A stretch of DNA of 64,000 nucleotides from Pseudopyrenochaeta lycopersici (lineage: Eukaryota > Ascomycota > Dothideomycetes > Pleosporales > Pseudopyrenochaetaceae), in NCBI GenBank assembly GCA_003313425.1, contig NHZP01000098.1, forward strand, positions 1 through 64,000, given 5' to 3'. Of this stretch, positions 569-64,000 are shown piece by piece; position 1 is the first letter of the stretch; every line of letters starts with the position of its first letter. The notes under the pieces were generated by a model. That model saw only the letters and a program-made list of their open reading frames with translations, had not been told where the DNA came from and searched no databases. The position numbers and the translations under genes are program-made.

Positions 569-1086
569 TTAAGGGTGTGTGGACGCCCTGGGATGGAACA
601 TCAGACCTCTCGAAAAAATGGCTAAGTTCATTTTTGTTGTGGCTGGAAGTCACGTGTTGGGGGAGCTGAAAAAAATTTTCAGCCACTCCTCAACTTTTCT
701 AGTGTGGCGCAGCCTATATATGATTCCTTTCACTAGAAAGTTGTCAAGTGGTCCGGCAGCCTCGTGCTGCCTGGACCCTGGACACTTTACACGTATGGCG
801 TTGCCACGACTGGAGGGAGTACCGAAGGGTTAGGCTTTTTAAAGCCTAGAGGCAAGAGCCCCTGTAAGCAACGCGAGCACGGACTGTGCGGGTCATCTGA
901 CCTTGGTTTGCACGTGGGAGACACTCTTGGCCCCACCACGCTCTCAATCAGTTGTTTGATTGGTCTATGGAGATAGATTCATGGAGGGCGCACACTCGTG
1001 CCAACTAGGGACTAGGTGGTCTTGGCATTGCGCAAGACAGATATCGAGAGATATAAGAGGGGGGACAACCCTCCCCTTCACGGAGG
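569..1086 (+). repeat. Boundary module U0/U1 with promoter
   Basis: Left arm CAACTTTTCTAGTG (691-704, one extra T) faces right arm CACTAGAAAGTTG (731-743) around mini-hairpin GGCGCAGCC. Downstream covarying stem AGGCTTTTTAAAGCCT at 832-847; AATCAG/TGATT hairpin with inverted CCAAT box near 961; TATA-like ATATAAG at 1051-1057; initiator-like CACGGAG at 1079-1085. Confidence 0.8.
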
Positions 1087-1126
1087 TGTTCTATACTGTA
1101 TAGGTTTTTCTCTCTACTATACTGCG

Positions 1127-1899
1127 ATGGTGTCGCGGCCTGGACAGGGCACTATGGCGGGTCCTAGTGCTACAAGAAGGTTCTTATATCTTTTAGAAGC
1201 GTTAAAGGAAGGGACTTCCCGTGGGGTACTTCTAGGGACAGGTATAGAATATGGAGTCGTGATGGATCACGTGTCGGGTAGGTGATCTCTTTCTCTTTGT
1301 CTCGTTGGAGATGTCAGTAGGGGAGGCCCCCAACTAACGGAGTAGCAGAGCTTGTGGGACGCAATGTGTCTCTCACGGTTCACGTGGAGTTGTCGGGAAG
1401 CCAGTCTTGGTGGCTTACAGAGGTGAGCGGGCAGCCCCCTCGGCAGTGTGTTAGAGGAACAGCATACACTTTGTCTGGAAGACTACGAGCGCTTTAGTAG
1501 CCAGGGGGGCACCTGGCAGTCAGTTCTAGTTTTTAAGGTGGATATCCCTTATAGGGGTCAAGTGCGGAGCTCTGTTGCATTTGGGCTATTGTCTGAGGAA
1601 GCACTACATGCGCTGCAAAGGCACATCTTACCTTGTCTGACACCCGGTAATCGGCACGCTGCTCATGCGTTGGTTGTCGATAGTTTGTTCGACTTGTTGG
1701 AGGATGGGTATTCTAGTAAGGGTGTGTACCGTGAAGATACGATGTGTGAGCGTAGTGAGAATACATGTCACTCTATCATAGTTTGTCCTTTCAGATGGGT
1801 TTTGCGGTGTATGGCCGCGCACGGAGTTTGACTAGTTTGCTGGGATCAGTGAGGCTGTTGGCATAGTAGAACCATCAGGAGATAACTAGTTAAGTTGCC
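1127..1899 (+). pseudogene. U1: decayed two-exon array gene, frameshifted copy of U24
   Basis: Exon 1 starts at ATG 1127 (gcgATGGTGTCGC context) and ends at 1277. The intron 1278-1348 begins GTAGGT and ends CTAACGGAGTAGCAG. Exon 2 starts at 1349 in family frame, but an extra T near 1451 (tgtgTTagagg against tgtgTagagg in U24) brings a stop at 1495-1497. Further on, the Cys motif is degraded, another frameshift lies near 1800, and two family Trp codons read TAG (GAC TAG TTT; AAC TAG TTA). The downstream damage is shared with U24. The extra T is unique to this copy and could be a sequencing error, because all differences I found between U1 and U24 are single-base indels. Confidence 0.7.
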
Positions 1900-2135
1900 A
1901 TATGTTATAGTAACATAGTAGTTGTAGGTTCCTTTCATGGTTAAGCGTGTATATGGAGTATGCTAAGGTAGTAGAAACGGTACGTTAGTAGGATGAAGTA
2001 TTTCATGTATTACGCTATGAGATTATGATTATAGACTAATATTCTTTAGTATAGTATATATAGGAATAGGTACTAATGTAGTAATGGTATGGCTATTCGA
2101 GGAACGAAGAAGTTGTGGTGCGTAGCTTGGTCAGG
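1832..2135. other. U1 3' remnant and AT-rich tail
   Basis: The first 70 bp are decayed exon 2. The rest is TAGTA-rich low-complexity sequence with no ORF, RNA gene or repeat of its own that I can see. Confidence 0.5.
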
Positions 2136-2650
2136 AAGGGTGTGGGCGCCCTTGGGATGGAACATCAAAAAAAAATAAAAAATTGGCTAAGTCCAATTTC
2201 ACAGTGGCTGGAGGCCATGCAGAGTCACCTGGGTGTGGCGCGGATTTCGCGCACAGACCAGAAATCAACTTTCTAGTGTGGCGTTCCGCCTATATATGAT
2301 TCCTTTCACTAGAAAGTTGTCAAGTGGTCACCAGCCTTGCGCTGGAGACCCTCGACACTTTACCTGTAAGCAGAGCCTGTGAGTGGAGGGAACAACGGAG
2401 TGTTAAACTAGAATTAGTTTAGAGGCGCTGCACGCTTAAGTAACACGCAGCACGGACCGTGTGAGTCAGATGACTGCAGGGTTACCCGTGGGAGGCACCC
2501 CTGCCCCCACAACACGGTCAGACTGAAGTTCTGATTGGTCTATGGACATAGATTCATGGAATGGGCACTCCGCTGCTCCCTAGGGACTAGGTGCTCTTGG
2601 CGTTGCGCAAGACAGAGATCTATATAGGAGGGGAGCCCGCTCACAGAGTA
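2136..2650 (+). repeat. Boundary module U1/U2 with promoter
   Basis: Hairpin AAGGGTGTGGGCGCCCTT leads in. Perfect 13-bp arms CAACTTTCTAGTG (2266-2278) and CACTAGAAAGTTG flank GGCGTTCCGCC. Core TGATTCC at 2297. Covarying stem AAACTAGAATTAGTTT at 2405-2420; inverted CCAAT box near 2534; TATATAG at 2621-2627. Confidence 0.8.
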
Positions 2651-2737
2651 CTGAGACGCAGGGAGTGCGTGTTTCGGAGACAGTTGTTGAAGGTTGTTTT
2701 ACTTTGAAAACAGCATTTGTAGTACGCAGAGGGGCGG

Positions 2738-3336
2738 ATGGCTGGACGGCACAGCACCAGCGTGGAATGCCTACGTTTACCCCGGGCAAGTTCGGGGGCG
2801 AGAGCGTGGCGACGGTTTGGCGAAGCACATCGAAGATTAACAACAACGGAGTGTTTCTTGCTGCAAACTATACAGGCTGTATATCCAGTTAGTGGTAGCA
2901 ACTCGTCCACGTCTGTGCTCGACACAACACGACTAGGTGTGTGGCGGTATGTATCACGTAGTGTCCTGCCAGTGGAGCGTGTGCTTATACAACAGTTTTT
3001 TTCAGAGGACGGATTCGTCTCTTGTTGTCGCATTTATCGATATGTGGTGCATATCTGGAGGATCATGAGAGAAGATGGTTGCATGCTCGTGTTAACGGCT
3101 TTAGGGATCGAGTTGCAGAGTTGGTAGGCAGCAGTAGTCTGTATGCGCAGTATACGGTTTCTTGGAGAGACCAGTTGGATTCTCTCGTGCAGGACGGAAG
3201 TCGGCGTTTACCACTCGGAGAGTTATCCCTAGATGCTGTATTGGCAAGGCAAAGAAACGCTGTTAGTCCGCAAGGGCGTAATTCTCGTGTGCACGATCTC
3301 GAAGAGGTAGAGAATGATTATAGTACTACACATTAG
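2738..3336 (+). CDS. U2: probable F-box-like protein gene, reading frame changes at a T7 run
   Basis: ATG 2738 opens 129 codons in one frame. From about 3000 the more protein-like sequence is in another frame, running to the TAG at 3334-3336. It reads LLSHLSICGAYLEDHERRW followed by a VNGFRDRV segment, which resembles an F-box helix pair and the end of exon 1 in other units, then LPLGELSLDAV, close to the family's FAELSLEALD. A T7 run at about 2995-3001 sits where the frames would have to be joined; one extra T would give a single frame of 199 codons. Either an indel error or a real frameshift or pseudogene is possible. The F-box call is by pattern only. Neither an intron nor the CxCx5CxxC and GISDAVG motifs are visible. 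Confidence 0.35.
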
Positions 3337-3690
3337 ATCTTTTGTAGATCTTGTTATTTGCTATGGTGGTCGCGGACTGCGTTACGATCTGGGTGAGGCA
3401 TGGTATGTGTTTTATGCTATGTGTTAGTATCTATTGTAGGAACACGTACATTTGTTTAAGGTACGTATGTAACGTTCTATCGAGAGTAAGGTAAGTAATA
3501 ACATTCCTTCTGCTAGGTATGTAGTTAGTATTAAGTATGCTTTAACCATGTTACTAGGTTGCTTTATAGGATGTACATATCTATACATAATTATAGTTGT
3601 ACGTTTAATTTTCCTGGAAATAAGTACTACTGTAGTAAAGGTAGGGTTATTGCGAAGAATAAAGAATTTGTATGGCAGAGCTTGGTTAGT
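3337..3690. other. U2 3' tail
   Basis: AT-rich, TAGTA-rich stretch of about 350 bp with no convincing ORF or RNA gene. It appears to be length-adjusting filler before the next boundary module. Confidence 0.5.
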
Positions 3691-4206
3691 AAGGGCTCCC
3701 ACCCTTAGGATGGAATATCGAACATCCATTCTTCTCAAAAAAATGGCGAAGTCCAATTGTGTGTGGCTGGAAGACAGGCTGAGTCAGATGGGGGCTGTGG
3801 CGCGTTCTGCGCACAGACGGGTTGTGATGGGCACGGGCCCATTCTCTCAACTTTCGAGTGCTATATATGATTCCTTTCACTAGAAAGTTGTCAAGTGGTC
3901 AGGAGCCTTGCGCTTCTGATCCTAGACACTTTACAATTAAGCAGAGCCTGTGAGTGGAGCGAGTACCGAAGGGTTAGTCTTGAATAAGACTAGAGGCGCT
4001 GCCCCCTGTAAGTAAGCCAGAGCACGGACGGTGCGGGTCGTTTGACCTTGGTTTGCCCACTCTTTTTCAGGACGTTAGTCTGATTGGTCTATGAACATAG
4101 ACACGGGGACTAGGCAGTATACTGCCCACTAGGGACTGGTATTTCTTGGCGGCGCGCAAGACGGGGACATATATAACAACAGCGTCTCTGCTGTTGGCAC
4201 GGAGTG
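3691..4206 (+). repeat. Boundary module U2/U3 with promoter
   Basis: Left arm CAACTTTCGAGTG (3848-3860, one mismatch to the right arm), no mini-hairpin; core TGATTCC at 3868. Covarying stem TAGTCTTGAATAAGACTA at 3974-3991. Inverted CCAAT 4083-4087; TATATAA 4170-4176; inverted repeat AACAGCGTCTCTGCTGTT; initiator CACGGAG near 4199. Confidence 0.8.
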
Positions 4207-4302
4207 TGTTTTACATTCCCTTGGGATACGCATAATATTCTGGTGGATATTGTGTGGCACACTTTTCACGGATGTGCTCCTAGTGCACCATCGAAGGCCT
4301 TT

Positions 4303-5159: not shown

Positions 5160-5281
5160 GTTATTGTTTTTGTTGAATTTGAAATAAACGTAGCATATAG
5201 TTATTTGTATTGATCGTATTATATAGAACTTATACAGAACCCTAAACAATTGAAAAAATTGTATTACAGAGCTTGGTTAGT

Positions 5282-5874: not shown

Positions 5875-5938
5875 GCAGGACGTTGGTGGGTTTGCCTCGA
5901 GTGTCTTTTGTGGATGCAAAGGGCTGTTGCACTAGCGT

Positions 5939-6674
5939 ATGCTTAATAGTTATAGTATGGAAACTATGAGCGCGGATGTTGCTCTTTGCATTGTTGAGCA
6001 TGTAGGGACCCTCACTGAGCTTGCGTTGCTGCGACGTGTTTGTCGCGGCTGGAGGTCATCTGTTACGAAAGGGTTTAGCGCATGGGTGCGGGCACAGCGG
6101 AGCGATATGCCTTCAGAGGTCTTCTCTTTGGCGGAGCTCGCTCTTGTGAGGGATCACGTGGACAGTGAGTTAGACGGAGTTGTGCAGTGTAGCTGCGGTA
6201 TTGTTGATCCCTCACGCAGTTCTTGTGTCCCATGGAGTGGTACTGGAGTGCGACGTTTCTCGGCCATGGAGAGCGTGGCGGCTTATATGGAATGGTGCGC
6301 AGAGGGCGCTGCTTTGTGGCAGTATGTGGGGTTGTAACTGCCTCTTGCGTGTAAAGCCTTCTTTACCAGCAGCAGGCGAAGGCTATCTTGTCCTGCGAAG
6401 GGTTCCTTGGCCATGTTGGAGCCATGCTCAAAGCTGTGATGTGTGTATCACTATGCTATGTACGAAGTCGTTGGATGCGTTGGTAGAGACGATTATTCCC
6501 TTCTTTTGGGAATCCCGTGGGAGAGAGGTCCCGCAGGATATCGTTCTTTGTGGGGACTGGAGGGTTACCTTTGTCTGGCGCGATAAGCTCTATCATGTGT
6601 TACATGAGGTTGTGTTTGGCTGTCTGCGTAGGCGGCATTCCTGTAGTGGTACTGTGTTATTACGTGGTACGTAG
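5939..6674 (+). CDS. U4: F-box protein, two exons (226 aa)
   Basis: Join 5939-6164 and 6220-6674; intron GTGAGT...CTCACGCAG, phase 1. Exon 1 has the clearest F-box in the window at about residues 10-45: MSADVALCIVEHV then LTELALLRRVCRGW. F-box proteins bind SKP1 and present substrates to cullin-RING ubiquitin ligases. Exon 1 ends LAELALVRDHVD, matching the VRDHV end of the family's exon 1. Exon 2 keeps VLVSHGVVLECDV at its start and SLDALVETIIPFF in the middle, but lacks the CxCx5CxxC and GISDAVG motifs. A short upstream ORF (ATG near 5912, ending TAA at about 5944) overlaps the start. An alternative start is the in-frame ATG at 5957. Confidence 0.75.
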
Positions 6675-7358: not shown

Positions 7359-7398
7359 GATATGTTTTACAATATGTAGTTTTTTTACTACACATGCG

Positions 7399-9997: not shown

Positions 9998-10536
9998 GAA
10001 GGGTGTGGGCGCCCTTGGGATGGAACATCAAATCTTCAAAAAAAAAATCCCAAGTTTTTTTGGCTAAGTCCAATTTCACAGTGGCTGGAGGCCATGCAGA
10101 GTCACGTTGGCTGTGGCGCAGATCGTGCGCACAGGCCCCGACTCAACTTTCTAGTGTGGCGTTTTGCCTATATATGATTCCTTTCACTAGAAAGTTGTCA
10201 AGTGGTCGGCAGCCTCGCGCTGCCTACCCTGGACACTTTACATCGTAAGCTTTGCCTGTGACTGGAGGGAACAACGAAGTGTTAAACTAGAATTAGTTTA
10301 GAGGCAATGCACTAGTAAGCCCGCTAGCGCACGGACGTAGCGCGAGATCATCTGATCGTAGTGGGCACGTGGGTGGCACTCCTGCCCCCACTCCGTCCTC
10401 AATCAGTACTTTGATTGGGCTATGAACATGGACGCAGGGACTAGGCACTCCGTTGCCTGCTAGGGACTAGACTATCTCGGCGGTGCGCAAGACAGAGAGG
10501 TATAAGAGGGGAGCCCCCTCCCCCGCGCATGGAGTG
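9998..10536 (+). repeat. Boundary module U6/U7 with promoter
   Basis: Perfect arms (left 10144-10156) around GGCGTTTTGCC; core 10175. Covarying stem AAACTAGAATTAGTTT 10284-10299; AATCAGTACTTTGATT with inverted CCAAT 10414-10418; TATAAG 10501-10506 followed by GAGGGGAGCCCCCTCC; initiator CATGGAG near 10529. Confidence 0.8.
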
Positions 10537-10725
10537 TGTTTGGGTACCTCTTTCTTTAGTAGCATTTTTTGCTTACTGGTGTACCCAGTGACCTAGTTGC
10601 GGATAGCGTGGACGGGAGCTTCTAACGTTAGTTATTTCCCGGTGGGGATTCTATTGCGTGTCTACGCTTGCACGGTGTGCGTTGTAGGGTGTCTCTTTGG
10701 TCAGCTCCGGGAAGGTGCGTGTATA

Positions 10726-11388
10726 ATGAGCGTCCCTATCGGTGTTGCTACGTTTGCACCGTTGAAGCCGGGCACGTTTGGCGGCTTGCCTCCTGTTAGC
10801 GGAGCCGTACATTCGAGGTTTAGCAGTGGTCCGGTTACGGCGACGAAGAATGCTGTTGTATTGCAGGGCAACTGTGACGTGGTTTCTGCCGCCCCCCATG
10901 GAGATGGTGTGAAGGGTAAACGAGGTGCTTTGCCTGCGGAGGTCGGCGATCTTGTCACGAAGTGTACGGTTCTAGAGGAAGAATTGCGGTCGCTTGCGTT
11001 GGCGTGCGATTCTGATGCGGATGCAGTAGTAGGGGATGTGCGAGAGCAAGCAAGGCAGCTAGCAGACAGTGGGTTGGATGCAAAATGTGCAGATGGTGTT
11101 CTGTACCATGCGGCGCACTTGCAATTTCTTACGGAAGCGGTGGGCACGTTTCGCAAAGTTACGCGTAGCGAGTGTTCGAATCATGCATGGCAGCGGAAGC
11201 GTAAGCCTGAGGAGGTATCCGCTGAGGAAGAGTATGATGTTTGTCCGAGTTGTTCGTGGACATGTGGTTGTACTTTGGGGGAGATGCTTTCTCTCGCAAC
11301 TTGTAAAGGACTGTTAGGGCTCTGGGATGCGGAGCGAGTGCTGGTTATGATGCAACGGGCCCGAACCGGGTTGTGTTGCAATGTATAG
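10726..11388 (+). CDS. U7: intronless hypothetical protein, helical with Cys-rich end (220 aa)
   Basis: The ATG at 10726 is the first in the frame; the frame is open back to 10597, but only with non-ATG codons. The N-terminal 45 residues are low in structure (APLKPGTFGGLPPVSG). Residues about 75-165 look helical (VLEEELRSLALACDSDAD). A basic patch QRKRKPEE is followed by CPSCSWTCGC, a possible metal site, and a helical C-terminus. It shares nothing obvious with the two-exon family. The unit is copied as U13. About 190 bp of leader precede the start. Function unknown. Confidence 0.65.
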   Translation: MSVPIGVATFAPLKPGTFGGLPPVSGAVHSRFSSGPVTATKNAVVLQGNCDVVSAAPHGDGVKGKRGALPAEVGDLVTKCTVLEEELRSLALACDSDADAVVGDVREQARQLADSGLDAKCADGVLYHAAHLQFLTEAVGTFRKVTRSECSNHAWQRKRKPEEVSAEEEYDVCPSCSWTCGCTLGEMLSLATCKGLLGLWDAERVLVMMQRARTGLCCNV

Positions 11389-11587
11389 GATGGGTACTGT
11401 CCTCTGTAAGGGTTATACTATGATGAAATCCGTTCTTCGTGTACGTATTGTGCATTTTGTTTAAACTGTGTATTTTTGTGTTTATAGTTTATATTTGTTA
11501 TGATTTAGGCTACGGAGATTTGTTTGTTAGCTGTAAGTGAATGCATTCACGTTATTATAATGAAGTTTACTAATAGTAACAGGATTA

Positions 11588-12010
11588 TTTTTTGGGGAAG
11601 CATTAGTTCCGTCCCCAAATTTTTTGGCTAAGTCCGATTTCCCTGTGGCTGGAGGCCATGCAGAGTCAGACGGGGGCTGTGGCGCGTTTTGCGCACAGAC
11701 GGGTTGTGATGGGCACGGGCCCATTCCGTCAACTTTCTTGTGTATATATGATTCCTTTCACTAGAAAGTTGAGCAAGTGGTCGGCAGCCTTGCGCTGCCA
11801 GCCCTTGCAACTTTACCCTAAGCTTTGCCAACGATTGGAGATCGTAGCGGACGCGTCAAGCTACTTGTAGTTTGGGGGCAAAGACCCCTGTAAGTAAGCC
11901 AGAGCACGGATCGTGTGAGTCAGATGACGCTGGGTTACACGTGGGAGGCACCCCTGCCCCCACAACGCTCAGTCAGTTGTCTGATTGGTCTATGAATATG
12001 GACATAGGGA
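11588..12010 (+). repeat. Boundary module U7/U8, no TATA
   Basis: Lead-in hairpin TTTGGGG..CCCCAAA (11591-11619). Left arm CAACTTTCTTGTG 11730-11742; core 11749. The right arm continues GAGCAAG, matched downstream by CTTGCAACTTT. Covarying stem CAAGCTACTTGTAGTTTG. Inverted CCAAT 11983-11987 is present, but no TATATAAG follows. Confidence 0.75.
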
Positions 12011-19499: not shown

Positions 19500-20008
19500 G
19501 GTAAGTGCGAAAAAAAAATCCCAAATTTTTTTGGCTAAGTCCACAGGAATTGTGGCTGGAGGCGATGCAGAGTCACATGGAGGTGTGGCACATGGGGGGG
19601 GCACGGGCCCCGACTCAACTTTCTAGTGTGGCGAACCGCCTATATATGATTCCTTTCACTAGAAAGTTGTCAAGTGGTCGGCAGCCTCGCGCTGCCTACC
19701 CTGGACACTTTACATCGTAAGCTTTGCCTGTGACTGGAGGGAACAACGAAGTGTTAAACTAGAATTAGTTTAGAGGCAATGCACTAGTAAGCCCGCTAGC
19801 GCACGGACGTAGCGCGAGATCATCTGATCGTAGTGGGCACGTGGGTGGCACTCCTGCCCCCACTCCGTCCTCAATCAGTACTTTGATTGGGCTATGAACA
19901 TGGACGCAGGGACTAGGCACTCCGTTGCCTGCTAGGGACTAGACTATCTCGGCGGTGCGCAAGACAGAGAGGTATAAGAGGGGAGCCCCCTCCCCCGCGC
20001 ATGGAGTG
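19500..20008 (+). repeat. Boundary module U12/U13 with promoter
   Basis: No AAGGG hairpin in the lead-in; instead an A8..T7 run. Perfect arms (left 19616-19628) around GGCGAACCGCC; core 19647. From the core onward the sequence is identical to U7. Stem 19756-19771; inverted CCAAT 19886-19890; TATAAG 19973-19978. Confidence 0.8.
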
Positions 20009-21220
20009 TGTTTGGGTACCTCTTTCTTTAGTAGCATTTTTTGCTTACTGGTGTACCCAGTGACCTAGTTGCGGATAGCGTGGACGGGAGCTTCTAACGT
20101 TAGTTATTTCCCGGTGGGGATTCTATTGCGTGTCTACGCTTGCACGGTGTGCGTTGTAGGGTGTCTCTTTGGTCAGCTCCGGGAAGGTGCGTGTATAATG
20201 AGCGTCCCTATCGGTGTTGCTACGTTTGCACCGTTGAAGCCGGGCACGTTTGGCGGCTTGCCTCCTGTTAGCGGAGCCGTACATTCGAGGTTTAGCAGTG
20301 GTCCGGTTACGGCGACGAAGAATGCTGTTGTATTGCAGGGCAACTGTGACGTGGTTTCTGCCGCCCCCCATGGAGATGGTGTGAAGGGTAAACGAGGTGC
20401 TTTGCCTGCGGAGGTCGGCGATCTTGTCACGAAGTGTACGGTTCTAGAGGAAGAATTGCGGTCGCTTGCGTTGGCGTGCGATTCTGATGCGGATGCAGTA
20501 GTAGGGGATGTGCGAGAGCAAGCAAGGCAGCTAGCAGACAGTGGGTTGGATGCAAAATGTGCAGATGGTGTTCTGTACCATGCGGCGCACTTGCAATTTC
20601 TTACGGAAGCGGTGGGCACGTTTCGCAAAGTTACGCGTAGCGAGTGTTCGAATCATGCATGGCAGCGGAAGCGTAAGCCTGAGGAGGTATCCGCTGAGGA
20701 AGAGTATGATGTTTGTCCGAGTTGTTCGTGGACATGTGGTTGTACTTTGGGGGAGATGCTTTCTCTCGCAACTTGTAAAGGACTGTTAGGGCTCTGGGAT
20801 GCGGAGCGAGTGCTGGTTATGATGCAACGGGCCCGAACCGGGTTGTGTTGCAATGTATAGGATGGGTACTGTCCTCTGTAAGGGTTATACTATGATGAAA
20901 TCCGTTCTTCGTGTACGTATTGTGCATTTTGTTTAAACTGTGTATTTTTGTGTTTATAGTTTATATTTGTTATGATTTAGGCTACGGAGATTTGTTTGTT
21001 AGCTGTAAGTGAATGCATTCACGTTATTATAATGAAGTTTACTAATAGTAACAGGATTATTTTTTGGGGAAGCATTAGTTCCGTCCCCAAATTTTTTGGC
21101 TAAGTCCGATTTCCCTGTGGCTGGAGGCCATGCAGAGTCAGACGGGGGCTGTGGCGCGTTTTGCGCACAGACGGGTTGTGATGGGCACGGGCCCATTCCG
21201 TCAACTTTCTTGTGTATATA
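19647..21220 (+). repeat. Unit U13, copy of U7
   Basis: Same length (1574 bp) and, as far as I read, the same sequence as 10175-11748. Flanks differ on both sides from the boundary loop outward. Confidence 0.85.
20198..20860 (+). CDS. U13: intronless hypothetical protein, identical to U7 (220 aa)
   Basis: The translated sequence is identical to the U7 product, including the CPSCSWTCGC segment. The start is taken at the ATG equivalent to 10726. With its promoter and tail also unchanged, this is a recent whole-unit copy and should be expressed if U7 is. Function unknown. Confidence 0.65.
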   Translation: MSVPIGVATFAPLKPGTFGGLPPVSGAVHSRFSSGPVTATKNAVVLQGNCDVVSAAPHGDGVKGKRGALPAEVGDLVTKCTVLEEELRSLALACDSDADAVVGDVREQARQLADSGLDAKCADGVLYHAAHLQFLTEAVGTFRKVTRSECSNHAWQRKRKPEEVSAEEEYDVCPSCSWTCGCTLGEMLSLATCKGLLGLWDAERVLVMMQRARTGLCCNV

Positions 21221-21558
21221 TGATTCCTTTCACTAGAAAGTTGTCAAGTGGTCGGCAGCCTCGTGCTGCCTACCCTTGTCACTTTACAATTAAGCAGGGC
21301 CGGCGAGTGGAACGAGTAGCGAAGCGGTAAACTAGAATTAGTTTAGGGGCATGCACTTAGTAAGCAACGCAGAGCACGGGCGCGTGCTGATCATCTGATC
21401 ACTGCTTGCCCACATTTTCTCAGATCTTTAGTCTGATTGGTCTATGTACATAGAGACATGGAGGGAGCAGCGCTCTGCTATCTAGGGACTAGGTGGTCTT
21501 GGCGAAGATAGCATGGACATCGATATATAAGAGGGGAGCCCCTTCCCCGTTCACGGAG
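21060..21558 (+). repeat. Boundary module U13/U14 with promoter
   Basis: Lead-in TTTGGGG..CCCCAAA as before U8; left arm CAACTTTCTTGTG 21202-21214; core 21221. Stem AAACTAGAATTAGTTT 21329-21344; CAGATCTTTAGTCTG, inverted CCAAT 21436-21440; TATATAAG 21524-21531; CACGGAG 21552. Confidence 0.8.
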
Positions 21559-27356: not shown

Positions 27357-27932
27357 GAATTTTTTTGGAAAATTGAAAATTATTCTTCAAAAAAAAAAAG
27401 CGTAAGTCCATTTTGTTGTGGCTGGGGGCACACTAAGTCACGTTAGATGCTGTGGCTCGGGAGAGTCACTTGTGGCGCAGATGGTGCGCACAGGCCAGGC
27501 CTCAACTTTCTAGTGTGGCGTTTTGCCTATATATGATTCCTTTCACTAGAAAGTTGAGCAAGTGGTCGGCAGCCTCGTGCTGCCAGCCCTTGCAACTTTA
27601 CTCTAAGCTTTGCCTATGAGTGGAACGAATAACGAAGTGTTAAACCACTTGGGGTTTAGAGGCAAAGATCCCTGTAAGCAACGCAGAGCACGGACGGTGC
27701 GGGTCAGATGACGCTGGGTTGCCCACTCTTCTCTCAATCAGTTGTCTGATTGGTCTATGGATATAACTACATGGAATGCGCATACCTCTGCTAACTAGGG
27801 ACTAGTGTGTATTAGTAATGCCAAGAGTGTGGACGGACACTTGGACAGACAGAGATATAAGAGGGGTGGCTTCCCCCTCTCCTCCCGTTCTCTGTCTTCT
27901 TCTTCTTCTTCTTCTTCTTCTGCTACACGGAG
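27357..27932 (+). repeat. Boundary module U17/U18 with promoter and TTC repeat
   Basis: Perfect arms (left 27503-27515) around GGCGTTTTGCC; core 27534; right arm continues GAGCAAG with CTTGCAACTTT downstream, as in U8. Stem AAACCACTTGGGGTTT 27642-27657; inverted CCAAT 27749-27753; TATAAG 27856-27861; a (TTC)n run at about 27895-27921 lies just before CACGGAG 27926. Confidence 0.78.
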
Positions 27933-51492: not shown

Positions 51493-51545
51493 TGAATGTT
51501 TGCAGGGACTGAACATTCTCTTTTATTCCCTTCTTTTATAACGCG

Positions 51546-56216: not shown

Positions 56217-56254
56217 ACATGTTTTACACTATGTAGTTCTTTTACTACATTGCG

Positions 56255-57040
56255 ATGGAGTCGCGCTCTGGACAGGGCACTATGGCGGGTCCTAGTGCTG
56301 CAAGAACGTTCTTATCCCTTGTGGATGCGTTACAGGAAGGGAGTTCCTGTTCATTGTCTGTAGAGACAGCTGTGGAACTGCACCGCGTGAGAGATCACGT
56401 GCACAGTCAGTGTCTTTGTCTTCTAGACACGGAAGTAGTTGGGGATTCCCAAACTGACGGAGTAGTAGAGCTGGTGGAGCGTGGAGTATCTCTTACTCTC
56501 TATTTCGATTTGTCGGGGAGACAATCCGCGTGGTTGACCAAGGAGAGCGGGCAGCTCCCTCGACAGTGTATTTCTCAGAAGCACGCGGAGTGTTTAAACG
56601 CTCATAAGGAACTCTGTGCACAGGGTCCCATCCGGCAGTCTCTCCTGGTCTTCAAGGTGGATACCTTGGTTAGGGGTGTAGTGCAGAGCCGCGTTGCATT
56701 TGCGGACCTCTCTCTGGAGACACTAGATGTGTTTCTGCAGCGGGTACTGCCGCTTATCGCATTGCCTAGTGGGCAAGCTGCGGTTGCTTCTTCTGTTACG
56801 GTACGTAGATTGTTCTACGTTTTAGAGGAAGGGTACTACAGTACGCGGGTGGACTGCGCATGTATTCTCGATAGGATCTGTCAGCCTTGTGCGTGTGCGC
56901 AACGGATTTCATCGAGGTTTCACTGGCTGGATAGATTTTATGAGGTATGGCCATTCGGAAGGTCTGACTGGTTCGCTGGGATCAGTGACGCTGTTGGAGA
57001 AGTTCAGCCGGAAGGCGAAGACTGGCTGAGTTGTGTATAG
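56255..57040 (+). CDS. U36: two-exon array family protein, in-frame intron (240 or 261 aa)
   Basis: Join 56255-56405 and 56469-57040. The 63-nt intron (GTCAGT...CTGACGGAGTAGTAG, GTTGGGGATTCCCAAAC hairpin) is open in frame. Exon 1 nearly matches U5 (MESRSGQGTMAG, SSCSLSVETAVEL, VRDHVHS). Exon 2 start matches U31 (AWLTKESGQLPRQC). Then FADLSLETLDVFLQRVLP, CACILDRICQPC, WFAGISDAVG, DWLSC. An AATAAA lies at 57181-57186, about 140 bp after the stop, a likely polyadenylation signal. Confidence 0.85.
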   Translation: MESRSGQGTMAGPSAARTFLSLVDALQEGSSCSLSVETAVELHRVRDHVHSQCLCLLDTEVVGDSQTDGVVELVERGVSLTLYFDLSGRQSAWLTKESGQLPRQCISQKHAECLNAHKELCAQGPIRQSLLVFKVDTLVRGVVQSRVAFADLSLETLDVFLQRVLPLIALPSGQAAVASSVTVRRLFYVLEEGYYSTRVDCACILDRICQPCACAQRISSRFHWLDRFYEVWPFGRSDWFAGISDAVGEVQPEGEDWLSCV

Positions 57041-57279: not shown

Positions 57280-57590
57280 AAGGGTGGGAGCCCTCAGGAT
57301 GGAACGTCAATCCTGTCGAAAAAAAATAAAAATTGGCTAAGTCCAATTTTGTTGTGGCTGGAGGGCACGTTGGGTCAGCTGGGTGTGGCGCGGATTTCGC
57401 GCACAGACCCTCCCTCAACTTTCTAGTGTGGCGTTTTGCCTATATATGATTCCTTTCACTAGAAAGTTGTCAATGTGGTCGGCAGCCTTGTGCTGCCTGA
57501 CCCATGTAACTTTACTGTAAGCTTTGCCTGTGACTGGAGGGAACAACGAAGTGTTAAACTAGAATTAGTTTAGAGGCAATGCACTATTTA
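57280..57590 (+). repeat. Boundary module U36/U37, truncated, no CCAAT or TATA
   Basis: Lead-in AAGGGTGGGAGCCCT; perfect arms (left 57416-57428) around GGCGTTTTGCC; core 57447. The right arm continues TCAATGTGG, paired with CCCATGTAACTTT as in U21. Stem AAACTAGAATTAGTTT 57556-57571. Conservation stops near 57585. Confidence 0.75.
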
Positions 57591-57951
57591 TGCAATGCAT
57601 GACGTGGATACGGTCCTTGTGGAGCATGGTTGAGTCATTGCAGGCAAGGGCGCTGCCGTGCTCTCGTCACGTGGATGCGGGGTTACTGTGAACGGAGGTG
57701 AGGTACCGGCTGGTTTTCGTTGCCTGCGAAGGCATTCTTAACGTAGTTGATCTTTTATCTTGTCTGCGGGGCTGGGCACCACGCAGGACTGTTTGGCACG
57801 GAAGTGCTTCAGGGGATTCGACGTCTTTTCCAATGAAAAAGAGCAGGCTGCGGGATCGTTGGTTCTATCCTTACCAACTCCACCACGGTCAGTGGGGTTG
57901 CGAAGATCGCATATCAGGTTTATAGTGGAGGCTTGCGGGTAGCTCGTCCCT
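57591..57951 (+). other. U37 leader
   Basis: About 360 bp with no TATA or CCAAT element. It begins with ATTTATGCAATGCATGACG. Small ORFs occur (ATG 57760 frame) but none resembles other products. Confidence 0.4.
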
Positions 57952-58545
57952 ATGTCCCGCTCGCGTAGGCAGCGTTCTTGTAGGAGCCGTCGTGTTGGAG
58001 GCACATCAGGTCAACCTGTTTCCATGCCACCCGGATCGGGTTTACAGAGTGTGCATGAACCGCGTCGTTTTCGGTCCAGGTTCGAGTTATGGGGCATTGA
58101 GGGTGTCTTTATGCCCCGTGATAGGTTCTTTCTCGTCCACTATGCGCCTTGGACAGGCCCGTGGGGCGTCAACAATGTGGAACAGGAGTTGTCCAATGTT
58201 TTACCTGCGGAGGCTGAGTTTTATGCGAGTCTGCGTGTGGAACTGCATGACCGGAGGTGGTTACGCTGTGTGTATGCCTTGGTGGACTTTGGCCCTGTGT
58301 CAGTGCGGACAGTGGTTTGGCTGCATGAGAGTCCCTTCCGTGTTGCGGAGTCTTCGGGGATAATTGCAGGACTTTGTGGCCGGCCAGGCACTCGTGGATC
58401 GAACGTACAGTGGCATCGTGAAGCGTTAGCCTCAGTTGCAATGTGGCAGAGGCGCATCGAGCGGTGGCGTGGTCTTGTGGGGCTCGTTCGCGATCCTTTG
58501 GTCGTTAGGCAAGACGAGTCTGCTGTACATACATCAGGTGTGTAG
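57952..58545 (+). CDS. U37: arginine-rich basic protein (197 aa)
   Basis: ATG 57952 to TAG. It begins MSRSRRQRSCRSRRVGG, a strongly basic tail, followed by a region predicted by eye to be beta-rich (RFRSRFELWGIEGVF, FFLVHYAPWTGPWG, FYASLRVELHDRRWLRC, VSVRTVVWLHESPF). It ends with a basic helix (MWQRRIERWRGLVGLV). NNVEQELSNVLPAEAEFYASLRVEL loosely matches the EF..L..TEYEV part of U8 and U29. A basic N-terminal tail on a beta-rich body occurs in nucleic-acid-binding and some small capsid proteins. I make no such assignment without structure prediction. Confidence 0.6.
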   Translation: MSRSRRQRSCRSRRVGGTSGQPVSMPPGSGLQSVHEPRRFRSRFELWGIEGVFMPRDRFFLVHYAPWTGPWGVNNVEQELSNVLPAEAEFYASLRVELHDRRWLRCVYALVDFGPVSVRTVVWLHESPFRVAESSGIIAGLCGRPGTRGSNVQWHREALASVAMWQRRIERWRGLVGLVRDPLVVRQDESAVHTSGV

Positions 58546-58904
58546 CAAACGGAGTTGTATTTTGGCGGTTGCTAACAATATTCTATAGGGTAGTACTGAC
58601 CATATCAGTACTTTGATGTTGTTCAAGCTCTGCTTTATCCTTTGTTATGGCGTGCTCGCAGAGGTTTATTGCTTTGTCATGTTATGCGTAATGTGTTACG
58701 GTAGTATGCGTTGTATGCTTTTTCAAGCCCGGTATGCAATTTTTTGTATGCTACTGGTCATGCAGTCATATTTGTATTAAGGTACTATATTTTTGTATCG
58801 TTTTAGGAATTGATGTATTGGTAATGGCGGAAGCTATTATCTTATGGTAGCGTAGGCTATATTGTTAGTGGGTACACTACGTTTGGAGGAACAATAGTTT
58901 TGTG
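58546..58904. other. U37 3' tail
   Basis: AT-rich, about 360 bp, with no convincing ORF or signal. Confidence 0.5.
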
Positions 58905-59367
58905 TCTCAAAAATTGGCTAAGTCCAATTATGTGTGGCTGGAAGACACGCTGAGTCACGTTAGCTGTGGCGCGGATTTGACGCGCACAGACCCGTCCTCA
59001 ACTTTTCTAGTGTGGCGCAGCCTATATATGATTCCTTTCACTAGAAAGTTGTCAAGTGGTCAGGAGCCTTGCGCTCCTTACCCTTGCCACTTTACACGTA
59101 AGCTTTGCCTGCGATTGGAGATCGCAACGGAGTGTTAAACTAGAATTAGTTTAGAGGCAATGCACTTAGTAAGCAGAGCAGAGCACGGACGGTGCGGGTC
59201 ATCTGACTCTTCTTTGCCACTCTTTTTTTCAATCAGTCATTTGATTGGTCTATGAATGTAGACAACATGGAATGGGCACTCCGCTGCTTACTATGTAGTA
59301 GTTGGTCTTTGCAGGGTGCAAGAGACAGAGGTATATAATAATAACAGGGGAGCTGTTTGTACGGAGT
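58905..59367 (+). repeat. Boundary module U37/U38 with promoter
   Basis: No AAGGG lead-in; AAATTGGCTAAGTCCAATT hairpin present. Left arm CAACTTTTCTAGTG 58999-59012 with GGCGCAGCC; core 59029. From the core identical to U31: stem 59137-59152, inverted CCAAT 59244-59248, TATATAAT 59332-59339. Confidence 0.8.
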
Positions 59368-60601
59368 GTCTTTTTTTCATTCTTTTTGCTTTGCGATGGA
59401 GTCGCTACAGGGACAGGGTGCTCCCATAGAGGCTATGGATGATAGTCGCTTGTTAGCAGTAGATACGCTCTTGCCTGGCGAGAAGGGGGAGCCCTTTCCT
59501 GGGACAGCCAACAATCTTCAATGGGTGCGGAGGCACGTTCAACGTAAGTATGTACTTCTTTTCTCAGGTTGGGTATCCCCTCCCAACTGATATCGTCACA
59601 GAGCTGGTGGGACACTGCGTTTCTCTTACTCTCTATCTCGATGTGTCGGGGAGACAATCCGCGTGGTTGACCAAGGAGAGCGGGCAGCTCCCTCGACAGT
59701 GTATTTCTCAGAAGCACCGGTTTTGTCTGGAGGACTATAAAGAACTCTGTGCACAGGGTACCACCCGGCAGTCTCTCCTGGTCTTCAAGGTGGATACGTT
59801 GGTTAGGGGCGTGGTGTGGAGCTATGTTGCGTTTGCGCAGCTCTCGTTAGAGGCACTGGATGTGCTGGTGGAGCGCGTTATCCCTCTTCTTGCATTGCCT
59901 AGTGGGCAAGCTGCGGATGCTTCTTCTGTTACGGTACGTAGATTGTTCTACGTTTTAGAGGAAGGGTGGTATAGTACGCGGGTCGACTGCGCGTGTACTG
60001 TTAAAAGTAGGTGTGAGCCTTGTGGGTTTTTATCCCATACATCACCAAGGTTTGTTCGTCTAGACCGATTCTACCGTTTATGGCGGTCGTCAAGGACATG
60101 TTGGTTTGGTGGACTCAGCGATGCAGTAGGAATAGTACAACCGTCAGGAGAGGACTGGCTCTCCTGTCGTGGATGGTCGTAACCACGATGTAGTTTGTTT
60201 GCCTTATGGAATGGCATTGGTAATGCTATAGTCTTTGAGACAGAGTACATGCTGACTTTGTGCTTTTTATAATACGTTAGTATCATAAAGCTCTATGGTA
60301 TAGTATAGCCTATTTGTGTAGGAGAATAGGTATGTTTATTGTATTTTACTTTTTTTTCGTATTAGAAAATAGGACTGATTTAGTAATGGTAGGGCTCTTC
60401 TGGAAACGAAGAAATCGTGGTGCGGAGCTTCATTGTTAAGGGTGTGGGCGCCCTTGGGATGGAACATCAAATCTCTCAAGAAATTTTGGCTAAGTCCAAT
60501 TTCCCTGTGGCTGGAGGGCCATGCAGAGTCACATGGAGATGTGGCACATGGGGGGGCACGGGCCTCCCTGACAACTTTTCTAGTGTGGCGCAGCCTATAT
60601 A
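59029..60601 (+). repeat. Unit U38, copy of U31
   Basis: 1573 bp, same length and sequence as 48002-49574. Upstream arms differ (CTTTTCTAGTG here, CTTTCGAGTG before U31), and the continuation after the next core differs. Confidence 0.85.
59396..60182 (+). CDS. U38: two-exon array family protein, identical to U31 (242 aa)
   Basis: Join 59396-59543 and 59602-60182. Translated exons match U31 exactly, including CACTVKSRCEPC and WFGGLSDAVG. The copy also preserves the long tail and lead-in up to the next boundary. Confidence 0.85.
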
Positions 60602-60960
60602 TGATTCCTTTCACTAGAAAGTTGTCAAGTGGTCACCAGCCTTGCGCTGGTTACCCTTGCCACTTTACCGTTAAGCAGAGCCCATGAGTGGAACGAGTAC
60701 CGAAGGGTTAGACTACTTGTAGGCTAGGGGCGCTGCCCCTTGTAAGCAAGCCGAAGCACGGACGTCGCGGGTCAGATGACCTCAGGTTGCACGTGGGAGA
60801 CACTCTTGGCCCCACCACCCTCTCAATCAGTACGCTGATTGGGCTATGAACATAGAGTCATGGAATGGGCCGCGCTCTGCCTTCTAGGGACTAGTGTCTC
60901 TTGGCAAAGACAGCATGGACATGTCTATATATAAGAGGGGAGGCCCTCCCCGTCCATGGA
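60438..60960 (+). repeat. Boundary module U38/U39 with promoter
   Basis: Lead-in AAGGGTGTGGGCGCCCTT; left arm CAACTTTTCTAGTG 60572-60585 with GGCGCAGCC; core 60602. Stem TAGACTACTTGTAGGCTA 60709-60726; AATCAGTACGCTGATT, inverted CCAAT 60838-60842; TATATATAAG 60926-60935. Confidence 0.8.
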
Positions 60961-61025
60961 CAGGATTTGTGTCTCTTTTTGATCATACACGACATTGTTC
61001 GTCTAGAGAACAATTGTGGTATGCG

Positions 61026-61687
61026 ATGGAATCGCGACGCGAAGCTGGTTCAGATTTTGTTGATGTTCTAACGGATACGTTGGCGGAGGGCATCCCGGGG
61101 GAACCTTTCGCAGGGACTGTAGAGGAGTTGGAGGACGTGAGAAGTCGCGTCGCTGGTAAGTGCTTAGTTCGTAGGCCTTTTAGTGGGGAACCACAACTGA
61201 CTGTGTAGCAGAGTTAGTGGAACAACCTGGTTCAGTAACGTGCCATATTAAGCAGGACGGATCATGGTCCTGGACAGTGGGTAGCATGTCTAAGCTGGAT
61301 CTTGTGAAGCAAAAGATCAGGGAATTGGAGACGGGGCGGAGGCCATTTCGTTTTATTAGAGGGAGCGGCGGTGAAGCATGCGCGCTGCTGTTGCTGAAGA
61401 TAGACATTGTACACGATGGTGGATTAGGTCCACGAGTTATTGTCGCGCCCTTGTCAGTTAAGGCGCTGGATCTGCTTGCGCGTAGCGTACTATCTATCAG
61501 TCGGGACGATGGGAAGTTGGTGGATACATTCTCTGCGGATACAGACTTTATCCGGCGTATGCTCATACAGTTGGATGGTAGGCATGACCTTGGTTACCAA
61601 GATTCTTCTCCGGCCCGTCCGGAATGGCGGCGCTTTTTTTTACTACCCACGGTTACATCGCGTGGCGTCTTTTTCAAGATTGAGTAA
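61026..61687 (+). CDS. U39: short two-exon array protein (201 aa)
   Basis: Join 61026-61155 and 61212-61687; intron GTAAGT...CTGACTGTGTAGCAG, phase 1. An out-of-frame ATG (61021) lies five bases upstream. Exon 1: MESRREAGSDFVDVL, PGEPFAGTVEELEDVRSRVAG. Exon 2: LVEQPGSVTCHIKQDGSWSW then TVGSMSKLD in place of LTKESG, LLLLKIDIV, VAPLSVKALDLLARSVLS. The Cys motif and GISDAVG are absent; it ends LPTVTSRGVFFKIE. Layout resembles U10. Tandem copy follows as U40. Confidence 0.72.
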
Positions 61688-62030
61688 ACAGTGCTAGACG
61701 GGTGTTGGCACCGTATCGATATGTTTTGTTAGCAAGCAGCTAAATAGGGGTGTAGTTGGGTTCAGCGATAGATTACCCGACAGGAGCTTGTTATGGCTTG
61801 CGATGGCTGGAGAGGTTTTTTATATGGTATGTTTATACCGTATAGTGCCTTCTGTAGGGGCGTCGATCGTGGTACAGAGTCGGTGTAGACTGAGGGAATG
61901 ATTATTTTGTAGGACAAAAAATTGGTGTAAGAATAAGTTATATTAATATTCTTTTTAGGCAAACTATATGCATGGAGTCTGTCCGTGAGTTGTTGTGGAA
62001 CAATAAGAGGAATAACCAAAAATAAAAAAT
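61688..62030. other. U39 3' tail
   Basis: About 340 bp of AT-rich sequence, no gene; contains TTATATTAATATTCTT and no obvious signal. Confidence 0.5.
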
Positions 62031-62532
62031 GGTAAGTCCCAAAAAAAATCCCAAATTTTTTGGCTAAGTCCGATTTCACAGTGGCTGGAGGCCATGTTGG
62101 GTCACATGGAGGTGTGGCGCGAAGAGGGCACGGGCCCATCCTCAACTTTCTAGTGTGGCGTTTTGCCTATATATGATTCCTTTCACTAGAAAGTTGTCAA
62201 GTGGTCACCAGCCTTGCGCTGGTTACCCTTGCCACTTTACCGTTAAGCAGAGCCCATGAGTGGAACGAGTACCGAAGGGTTAGACTACTTGTAGGCTAGG
62301 GGCGCTGCCCCTTGTAAGCAAGCCGAAGCACGGACGTCGCGGGTCAGATGACCTCAGGTTGCACGTGGGAGACACTCTTGGCCCCACCACCCTCTCAATC
62401 AGTACGCTGATTGGGCTATGAACATAGAGTCATGGAATGGGCCGCGCTCTGCCTTCTAGGGACTAGTGTCTCTTGGCAAAGACAGCATGGACATGTCTAT
62501 ATATAAGAGGGGAGGCCCTCCCCGTCCATGGA
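62031..62532 (+). repeat. Boundary module U39/U40 with promoter
   Basis: Lead-in with A8 and T6 runs around CCCAAA; perfect arms (left 62143-62155) around GGCGTTTTGCC; core 62174. From the core identical to U39: stem 62281-62298, inverted CCAAT 62410-62414, TATATATAAG 62498-62507. Confidence 0.8.
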
Positions 62533-62597
62533 CAGGATTTGTGTCTCTTTTTGATCATACACGACATTGTTCGTCTAGAGAACAATTGTGGTATGCG

Positions 62598-63259
62598 ATG
62601 GAATCGCGACGCGAAGCTGGTTCAGATTTTGTTGATGTTCTAACGGATACGTTGGCGGAGGGCATCCCGGGGGAACCTTTCGCAGGGACTGTAGAGGAGT
62701 TGGAGGACGTGAGAAGTCGCGTCGCTGGTAAGTGCTTAGTTCGTAGGCCTTTTAGTGGGGAACCACAACTGACTGTGTAGCAGAGTTAGTGGAACAACCT
62801 GGTTCAGTAACGTGCCATATTAAGCAGGACGGATCATGGTCCTGGACAGTGGGTAGCATGTCTAAGCTGGATCTTGTGAAGCAAAAGATCAGGGAATTGG
62901 AGACGGGGCGGAGGCCATTTCGTTTTATTAGAGGGAGCGGCGGTGAAGCATGCGCGCTGCTGTTGCTGAAGATAGACATTGTACACGATGGTGGATTAGG
63001 TCCACGAGTTATTGTCGCGCCCTTGTCAGTTAAGGCGCTGGATCTGCTTGCGCGTAGCGTACTATCTATCAGTCGGGACGATGGGAAGTTGGTGGATACA
63101 TTCTCTGCGGATACAGACTTTATCCGGCGTATGCTCATACAGTTGGATGGTAGGCATGACCTTGGTTACCAAGATTCTTCTCCGGCCCGTCCGGAATGGC
63201 GGCGCTTTTTTTTACTACCCACGGTTACATCGCGTGGCGTCTTTTTCAAGATTGAGTAA
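62598..63259 (+). CDS. U40: short two-exon array protein, identical to U39 (201 aa)
   Basis: Join 62598-62727 and 62784-63259. Both exons translate identically to U39. Adjacent identical copies fit unequal exchange or copying at the boundary element. Confidence 0.72.
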
Positions 63260-63602
63260 ACAGTGCTAGACGGGTGTTGGCACCGTATCGATATGTTTTG
63301 TTAGCAAGCAGCTAAATAGGGGTGTAGTTGGGTTCAGCGATAGATTACCCGACAGGAGCTTGTTATGGCTTGCGATGGCTGGAGAGGTTTTTTATATGGT
63401 ATGTTTATACCGTATAGTGCCTTCTGTAGGGGCGTCGATCGTGGTACAGAGTCGGTGTAGACTGAGGGAATGATTATTTTGTAGGACAAAAAATTGGTGT
63501 AAGAATAAGTTATATTAATATTCTTTTTAGGCAAACTATATGCATGGAGTCTGTCCGTGAGTTGTTGTGGAACAATAAGAGGAATAACCAAAAATAAAAA
63601 AT
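63260..63602. other. U40 3' tail
   Basis: Same AT-rich tail as U39 (61688-62030). Nothing further seen. Confidence 0.5.
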
Positions 63603-64000
63603 GGTAAGTCCCAAAAAAAATCCCAAATTTTTTGGCTAAGTCCGATTTCACAGTGGCTGGAGGCCATGTTGGGTCACATGGAGGTGTGGCGCGAAGAGGG
63701 CACGGGCCCATCCTCAACTTTCTAGTGTGGCGTTTTGCCTATATATGATTCCTTTCACTAGAAAGTTGTCAAGTGGTCGAGAGCCTTGCGCTCGGGACCA
63801 CGACGGCTTTACTGTAAGCTTTGCCTGTGACTGGAGGGAACAGCGGACGCGTCAAACTACTTGTAGTTTAATGGCAAAAGCCCCGGTAAGCAACATGCAG
63901 CACGGACCGTGTGAGTCAGATGACCGCAGGGTTGCCCACTCTCTCTCAGATCTTTGGTCTGATTTGTTAGCGGGAGCGTTGGGAGCTAGTAGCGGGTCAC
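63603..64000 (+). repeat. Boundary module U40/U41, breaking off after the CAGATC hairpin
   Basis: Perfect arms (left 63715-63727) around GGCGTTTTGCC; core 63746. Stem AAACTACTTGTAGTTT 63854-63869; CAGATCTTTGGTCTG 63948-63962. The usual ATTGGTCTATG is replaced by ATTTGTTAGCGGG, so the module diverges from about 63965: a TATA-less unit type or an array edge. Confidence 0.7.

What the first reader, a model, noticed from the sequence alone, without database searches (positions are those of the whole stretch)
721..63745. Forty consecutive cassettes of nearly constant length (about 1576 bp) carrying different genes
Seen: the core TGATTCC recurs at 721, 2297, 3868, 5452, 7025 and so on to 63746. The 40 intervals range from 1558 to 1593 bp, mean about 1576. 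Gene content is not constant: proteins range from 74 to 284 aa, with or without introns and from unrelated families. Ordinary tandem duplication would not keep unit length once the contents diverged this far. Inference: a physical ruler selects unit length, for example packaging or replication of single units, chromatin phasing (about 8 nucleosomes), or helical phasing (about 150 turns). I know of no described system with this layout.
Basis: partly seen in the sequence, partly recalled or inferred. Interest (0 to 1): 0.96.

Follow-up and report, generated by a model that had tools for sequence, protein, structure and literature searches.

The report
Virus segments tile fungal chromosome ends
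Nearly 900 units of about 1,577 bases, carrying dozens of different genes, lie head to tail in telomere-linked arrays of this probably fungal genome, and each exact unit start follows the previous unit or a telomere repeat at one fixed base; they are likely the segments of a tiny single-stranded-DNA virus whose replication enzyme would have stitched them onto chromosome tips and whose capsid would have fixed their length.

Summary
In detail: 40 consecutive units of 1558-1593 bp in the window and at least 893 exact unit starts in the genome. Of those 893, 852 follow GATT (previous unit) and 41 follow GGTT (telomere); none lies elsewhere. The joining base sits in the loop of a conserved stem-loop (TATATATGATT^CC), built like the origin of a rolling-circle (CRESS) virus. 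Units on other contigs encode a complete geminivirus-type Rep (11 copies, 9 with the full frame) and a basic protein predicted to be the capsid (8 identical copies). Unit length is held: body and tail lengths compensate (r = -0.8; 0 of 20000 permutations), also among units with unrelated genes. Best reading: an endogenous multipartite ssDNA virus with at least 59 segment types (about 108 estimated), whose Rep would have joined segments to telomeric 3' ends, telomerase recapping them and encapsidation setting the length. The closest known kin are 3-4-segment genomoviruses of fungi. Capsid identity, Rep-catalysed joining, free viral DNA and the fungal host are inferred; some array tips are truncated units capped elsewhere. 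Ten capped paper searches showed no report of such arrays.

The parts
726..63750 (+). Array of 40 complete units, each CCTTTCACTAG ... TATATATGATT; the contig (C98) continues to 78069, where it ends in TTAGGG repeats
2267..2318 (+). Example of the boundary stem-loop between unit 1 and unit 2, joining base 2301^2302 in the loop (predicted origin and nick site)
   Evidence: fold as single-stranded DNA, z -3.5; joining base defined by telomere junctions
726..1026 (+). Example of the 5' common region with covarying hairpins
   Evidence: 31 of the window's 40 units
56255..57040 (+). Accessory gene of the main family (261 aa), the member whose structure was modelled
   Evidence: no relative at E <= 0.01
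5939..6337 (+). F-box-like ORF (132 aa) in unit 4
   Evidence: Pfam F-box-like E = 7.3e-4, 19.7 bits, below the curated cut-off of 24.3
10180..11753 (+). Unit 7, non-family gene (263-aa frame); identical copy at 19652-21225
57452..59033 (+). Unit 37, non-family gene (ORF 57952-58545) with a diverged common region, yet 1582 bp long
60607..63750 (+). Two adjacent identical units (39 and 40)

Best explanation
The array is most likely an endogenous, multipartite single-stranded-DNA virus of the geminivirus/genomovirus type, whose about 1,577-base segments are predicted to have been joined end to end onto telomeres by the viral Rep protein. Shown directly: units meet at one base in the loop of a conserved stem-loop; all 893 exact unit starts follow GATT or GGTT; units elsewhere in the genome contain a complete Rep reading frame with the rolling-circle and helicase motifs; total length is conserved by compensation between parts; the main accessory gene family is under purifying selection. 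Inferred: Rep nicks TATGATT^CC and stays bound to the 5' CC end; a 3' end of the telomeric G strand (GGGTT-OH), or GATT-OH of a unit already there, takes over that strand; telomerase extends the new GATT end with AGGGTT repeats. Direct additions would give unit-unit joins, additions after a few telomerase cycles the joins with one to five repeats between units. The length is likely the amount of DNA that one capsid takes; the 353-aa basic protein is the predicted capsid protein. Recombination between ends would then copy units and blocks of units.
For: 893 of 893 exact starts follow GATT (852) or GGTT (41). 17 exact TATATATGATT|AGGGTTAGGG and 40 exact TTAGGGTT|CCTTTCACTAGAAAG joins, reversed controls 0; interior tracts are whole AGGGTT repeats, n = 1-5 in 17 sampled joins. 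Stem-loop around the join in 4 of 4 boundaries folded, z -3.5 to -5.3. Rep: motifs in one open frame; 11 copies identical over residues 84-331 of the query, 9 with a 411-residue frame; a profile with five relatives matches six PDB sequences up to E = 1, all Rep proteins, best 5.6e-6; 17 relatives, some on 1600-, 1688- and 1689-base contigs. Basic capsid-like protein in 8 identical copies. Length compensation r = -0.80 to -0.82, 0 or 2 of 20000 permutations. dN/dS median 0.38 in the main family. Known multisegmented genomovirus BcssDV1: one gene per segment, 1669-1707 nt, nick sites TACTCTT^CA/AG (PMC10731770, passages).
Against: The capsid identity has no sequence or fold support: no relatives, no Pfam match, structure model unusable (pLDDT 36). 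Pfam matches of the Rep are below the curated cut-offs and single-sequence PDB matches are weak (E 0.16 and worse, with one unrelated hit). Some Rep relatives lie on contigs of 3-50 kb, so not all are single segments. Not every tip ends at the exact base: C98 itself, a join on C65 (L045) and the truncated capsid-like fragments next to telomere repeats on C65 and C89 show truncated units. One telomere-bearing end, C17, showed no unit among the listed places. About 60-100 segment types are far beyond any multipartite virus known to me. No free viral DNA could be looked for.
Confidence: 0.7

Rival explanations
1. A domesticated or dead derivative: the Rep, origin and segments come from a CRESS virus, but the arrays are now host telomere DNA that spreads by recombination between chromosome ends, without particles; length would be a leftover of the viral stage.
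For: Two of 11 Rep copies have shorter frames; identical units recur on several contigs; no free form could be tested; some relatives lie on contigs up to 50 kb with altered motifs.
Against: Nine identical full Rep frames and eight identical capsid-like genes; purifying selection on the accessory family; length compensation persists among strongly diverged units, which a relic would lose.
Confidence: 0.2
2. The segments are viral, but they were joined to telomeres by telomere recombination or break repair and not by Rep.
For: Multi-unit repeats and identical units show that recombination copies arrays; in Magnaporthe, telomeric elements spread partly by break repair at interstitial telomeres (PMC7367193, passages).
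Against: Recombination does not predict one exact base, and the predicted nick site, in all 893 exact starts.
Confidence: 0.15
3. A telomere-targeting mobile element of another kind: Helitron, or non-LTR retrotransposon of the MoTeR/FoTeR type.
For: Exact joins without visible target duplication and a hairpin near the 3' end resemble Helitrons (recalled); intact Helitron frames exist in the genome; interstitial TTAGGG tracts resemble MoTeR arrays.
Against: The Rep is a single-tyrosine Rep with an SF3-type helicase part, related to geminivirus Reps; unit ends are CC and GATT; no reverse transcriptase or Helitron match among the unit proteins scanned with Pfam.
Confidence: 0.02
4. Assembly artefact: reads of free viral concatemers were wrongly joined to chromosome ends.
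For: No reads were available.
Against: The same junction base at 15 fetched non-unit flanks with short telomere tracts, and truncated units capped by telomere repeats.
Confidence: 0.05
5. An ordinary diverged satellite or host gene family whose unit length is kept by nucleosome or helical phasing.
For: Tandem layout with a constant period.
Against: Unrelated genes share the length; the Rep, the origin-like boundary and the junction rule stay unexplained; an 11-bp scatter leaves no helical register.
Confidence: 0.02

Closest known systems
Multisegmented genomoviruses of fungi: Botrytis cinerea ssDNA virus 1 (PMC10731770, passages) and Fusarium graminearum gemytripvirus 1 (listing and recall)
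   Same: Rep and capsid protein on separate segments, one gene per segment, nearly equal segment lengths (1669-1707 nt in BcssDV1), shared common regions, stem-loop origin cut after TT
   Different: Three or four segments there; here at least 59 types, a main family of diverse accessory genes, and residence in telomeres
Endogenous geminiviral sequences of plants (yam EGV1, PMC5014472, passages; tobacco GRD, mentioned there)
   Same: Rep-bearing ssDNA-virus units integrated as tandem repeats
   Different: Repeats of one partial 2.6-kb genome without capsid gene; no telomere in the paper's text (term search); here heterogeneous segments with an exact telomere join
MoTeR telomeric retrotransposons of Magnaporthe (PMC7367193, passages) and FoTeRs of Fusarium (listing)
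   Same: Arrays in fungal TTAGGG telomeres, short telomere tracts between elements, truncations and healing
   Different: [quoted passage not shown] here Rep and a rolling-circle-type origin
Nanoviruses of plants (recalled)
   Same: Several single-gene components of nearly one length sharing a stem-loop region
   Different: About 1 kb and 6-8 components; free particles; no telomere arrays known to me

Membership tests
CRESS-DNA viruses, geminivirus/genomovirus type (multisegmented genomoviruses) | Rep with HUH endonuclease motifs, a catalytic tyrosine and a helicase part with Walker A, B and C motifs | tested here: met
   VTWSQ, PHYHAVF, NYCFK, GPSRLGKT, VLNDIDF, VTCN in one frame (motif labels recalled); profile to viral Rep structures E 5.6e-6; Pfam Gemini_AL1_M 9.5e-4 but below its cut-off
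CRESS-DNA viruses, geminivirus/genomovirus type (multisegmented genomoviruses) | Replication origin as a stem-loop with the nick site in the loop | tested here: met
   structure and joining base only, cutting not tested
CRESS-DNA viruses, geminivirus/genomovirus type (multisegmented genomoviruses) | Jelly-roll capsid protein | tested here: inconclusive
   Basic N-terminus and all-beta tendency only; pLDDT 36, no relatives
CRESS-DNA viruses, geminivirus/genomovirus type (multisegmented genomoviruses) | Circular single-stranded DNA in particles | not testable with these tools
   Assembly only; relatives on 1600-1689-base contigs are suggestive
CRESS-DNA viruses, geminivirus/genomovirus type (multisegmented genomoviruses) | Rep falls within Genomoviridae in a tree | not tested
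CRESS-DNA viruses, geminivirus/genomovirus type (multisegmented genomoviruses) | Genome of one to four segments, as in the described members | tested here: not met
   59 types among 83 sampled units; hence likened to, not filed in, the described genera
Helitron | RepHel protein (Helitron_like_N plus SF1 helicase) and TC...CTRR ends inserted at AT (recalled) | tested here: not met
   Helitron_like_N matches (8 genome-wide) are on C1, C10, C28, C37, C38, C46, C67 and C68, none at a unit array place seen; unit ends are CC and GATT after TT
Telomeric non-LTR retrotransposon (MoTeR/FoTeR) | Reverse transcriptase | tested here: not met
   No RT among the unit proteins scanned; not all 59 types were scanned with Pfam
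Telomeric non-LTR retrotransposon (MoTeR/FoTeR) | Residence in TTAGGG telomeres with interstitial tracts | tested here: met
   works alike in this respect only

The most novel reading that the evidence does not exclude
A single-stranded-DNA virus with about a hundred segments has made chromosome ends its home: its Rep ligates capsid-length segments to the 3' strand of telomeres, telomerase recaps them, and the growing array serves both as chromosome end and as an archive in which a fast-diversifying set of accessory genes is kept and shuffled.
Probability: 0.4. Interest if true: 0.97.

Novelty: new variant of a known kind. Interest (0 to 1): 0.93.

Why it matters
It would be the most segmented ssDNA virus known to me and the first of its class known to me that lives at telomeres by a sequence-exact join. 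It makes two open questions testable: how many segments a multipartite virus can keep together, and whether HUH endonucleases can use the single-stranded telomere tip as a landing site. It also suggests that a constant unit length in genomic DNA can be the imprint of a capsid's volume.

Tried and rejected
Rejected: a known RNA family for the hairpin-rich 5' region (no Rfam match at gathering thresholds); it covaries but its role stays open. Rejected: Helitron, retrotransposon, satellite and phasing readings (see rivals). Tried without result: relatives of one main-family protein and of the capsid-like protein in 5.8 billion proteins; Rep and capsid-like protein in IMG/VR and Rep in phage records; fold matches of the accessory model in PDB and BFVD (no E below 0.001); Viral_Rep genome-wide (uninformative because its controls were silent too). 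Host identity is not settled: the ribosomal-RNA search did not complete. 'Probably fungal' rests on RIP-like decay of Helitron copies, TTAGGG telomeres and the Pyrenophora record among the Rep relatives. In the length test an anchor near +380 was found in only 16 of 56 units and was set aside; the test kept uses the tail anchor (52 of 56 and 55 of 59 units). In the covariation count I kept 31 of the 41 predicted pairs and dropped ten, some of them with double changes.
Full report
WHAT IS THERE. The window is the first 64000 bases of a 78069-base contig (C98) of an unnamed 62.7-Mb genome in 188 contigs. With the boundaries defined below, 83 complete units sampled from six contigs average 1577.7, sd 11.0, range 1536-1609 (exact start and end motifs and a length of 1000-2500 were required). 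Without that length filter, 91 intervals between the first 100 listed unit starts, on eight other contigs, average 1578.6, sd 11.0, also 1536-1609. Genome-wide there are 893 exact unit starts, which is about 1.4 Mb if all are full length.

THE UNIT AND ITS BOUNDARY. Arrays run into telomere repeats. On C18 the last unit ends ...CGCCTATATATGATT and TTAGGG repeats follow; on C23 the first unit begins CCTTTCACTAG... directly after ...TTAGGGTTAGGGTT. Genome-wide there are 17 exact TATATATGATT|AGGGTTAGGG joins and 40 exact TTAGGGTT|CCTTTCACTAGAAAG joins, plus four places with 1-2 mismatches, two of which are unit-unit joins. Of the joins whose DNA was fetched, 15 have non-unit flanks with 1-3 telomere repeats before the unit (at least four of these flanks share one subtelomeric sequence), 17 lie between units as whole numbers of AGGGTT (n = 1: 5, 2: 2, 3: 5, 4: 4, 5: 1) and one follows a truncated unit; ten of the 40 exact joins were not fetched. 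The strongest single result is the tally of exact unit starts: 852 follow GATT and 41 follow GGTT, together 893 of 893. In the eight contigs among the first 100 places, orientation fits: minus-strand arrays at left ends, plus-strand arrays at right ends.

EXCEPTIONS. Ends are less uniform than starts. C98 itself ends inside the boundary hairpin, with repeats added there; a unit on C65 is truncated before a tract (L045); fragments of the capsid-like gene on C65 and C89 run straight into telomere repeats. These look like eroded tips healed by telomerase. C17 has telomere repeats but no unit among the listed places, so not every end need carry an array.

THE BOUNDARY LOOKS LIKE A ROLLING-CIRCLE ORIGIN. 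The two ends of a unit side by side form CAACTTTCTAGTG ... TATATATGATT^CCTTT CACTAGAAAGTTG, a stem-loop with the join in its loop; four boundaries folded as single-stranded DNA give z-scores of -3.5 to -5.3. Known genomovirus nick sites also end in TT^: TACTCTT^CA and TACTCTT^AG in BcssDV1 (PMC10731770, passages read).

GENES. An open frame of 411 residues in a 1573-bp unit on C65 contains the motifs of a CRESS Rep (motif names recalled). Eleven copies are identical over residues 84-331 of the query; nine lie in a 411-residue frame, one in 331, one in 296. Taken alone the Rep matches weakly: Gemini_AL1_M at 9.5e-4, below its cut-off, and PDB Reps at 0.16 and 0.21 beside an unrelated hit at 0.34. 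A profile with five relatives matches six PDB sequences up to E = 1, all named Rep or replication-associated protein, at 5.6e-6 to 1.3e-4. Of the 17 aligned sequences (Rep and 16 relatives), nine match Gemini_AL1_M and seven Gemini_AL1. Seventeen relatives were found among 5.8 billion proteins, the three best 51-57% identical in the alignment; they include a Pyrenophora tritici-repentis protein on a 1600-base contig and others on 1688- and 1689-base contigs, but also some on contigs of 3 to 50 kb. A second unit type encodes a 353-aa protein with a Lys/Arg-rich N-terminus, in eight identical copies plus two 29-residue fragments. I predict it to be the capsid protein; no sequence or fold evidence supports that directly. 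The genome searches found neither gene on the window's contig.

Of 59 segment types among the 83 units, 41 carry one diverse family. One member had no relative at E <= 0.01 and none of 37 family ORFs matched Pfam at 0.01. The family is under purifying selection: of 236 usable pairs, the 149 with dS below 1.5 have a median dN/dS of 0.38 and all lie below 1. Its model (pLDDT 77.7, 29 sequences) matches no known fold at E 0.001. The other 18 types include the Rep, the capsid-like gene, an F-box-like ORF (7.3e-4, below the cut-off) and mostly unrelated proteins. A Chao estimate gives about 108 types; it assumes random sampling, which a few contigs do not strictly provide.

THE RULER. If the parts of a unit drifted independently, total length would vary more than any part. 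The reverse holds. With the tail anchor (52 of 56 distinct units), the body has sd 18.6, the tail 13.1 and the total 11.3; permuting tails gives a mean of 22.7 and none of 20000 permutations reaches 11.3 (r = -0.80). One unit per type gives the same for the 55 anchored types of 59 (r = -0.82, 0 of 20000), for the 40 of the main family (r = -0.81, 0) and for the 15 others (r = -0.82, 2). So total length is held, whatever the gene. Encapsidation is the natural cause in a multipartite virus; it is inferred, not shown.

THE COMMON REGION. The first 300 bases of most units carry hairpins whose arms vary together: on 31 of the window's 40 units (six near-duplicates and three units with a diverged region left out), 31 kept pairs of 41 predicted show 97.4% paired cells and 15 pairs with changes on both sides. 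No shuffle of 500 reaches four of the five measures, 3 reach the fifth (further pair types), and sliding the partners destroys the pairing. The structure was derived from the same alignment, which favours it in the slide control. The role is unknown.

MECHANISM. Shown: exact starts, telomere-linked residence, orientation in the arrays examined, Rep frame, length control. Inferred: Rep cuts the origin and stays on the 5' CC end; a free 3' end GGGTT of the telomeric G strand, or GATT of a unit in place, takes over that strand; telomerase extends the new GATT end. Interior tracts may also be short because longer ones were lost: in Magnaporthe, tracts of three or more repeats promote breakage (PMC7367193, passages read). 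Identical units on several contigs, and equal spacing of capsid-like copies on C81 and C120, suggest that recombination copies arrays as well.

AGE. Rep and capsid-like copies are identical. RIP-type indices of the units are 1.10 and 1.05, against 1.9-2.3 and 0.42-0.65 in old Helitron copies and one flank, and 0.62-0.71 and 1.12-1.18 in intact Helitrons. The units are thus far less affected than the old copies; mild RIP is not excluded, since 1.10 lies above the usual product cut-off (recalled).

LITERATURE. Ten searches listed no report of ssDNA-virus arrays at telomeres. The library holds open-licence PMC papers only and some lists were capped (15 of 655, 20 of 33), so this is weak evidence of absence. 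Three papers were read as passages (PMC10731770, PMC7367193, PMC5014472); all others were seen in listings.

Noticed in passing
window, first 300 bases of units: Hairpin arms come in a few alternative versions combined differently from unit to unit, as if modules were shuffled by recombination.
   Followed up: partly
G000 C28:146898-147551 and C46:105562-106215 (L066, L067): Two Helitron proteins with open frames of about 1220 aa beside five copies with 9-20 stops, mostly TAG, as in RIP.
   Followed up: partly
P0015, P0016, P0018, P0019: Rep relatives, two of them on contigs of 24.9 and 50.4 kb, in which the tyrosine motif is replaced; possibly endogenous, repurposed Reps in other genomes.
   Followed up: no
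C61 (L064): The shortest (1536) and longest (1609) sampled units lie next to each other.
   Followed up: no
C65:291085-291171 and C89:100206-100292: Fragments of the capsid-like gene end at the same residue on two contigs and run into telomere repeats.
   Followed up: no
window 5939-6337: F-box-like ORF; plant nanoviruses also carry an F-box protein (recalled).
   Followed up: no
window 27895-27921: (TCT)9 tract inside an ORF of unit 18, read there as a run of leucines.
   Followed up: no
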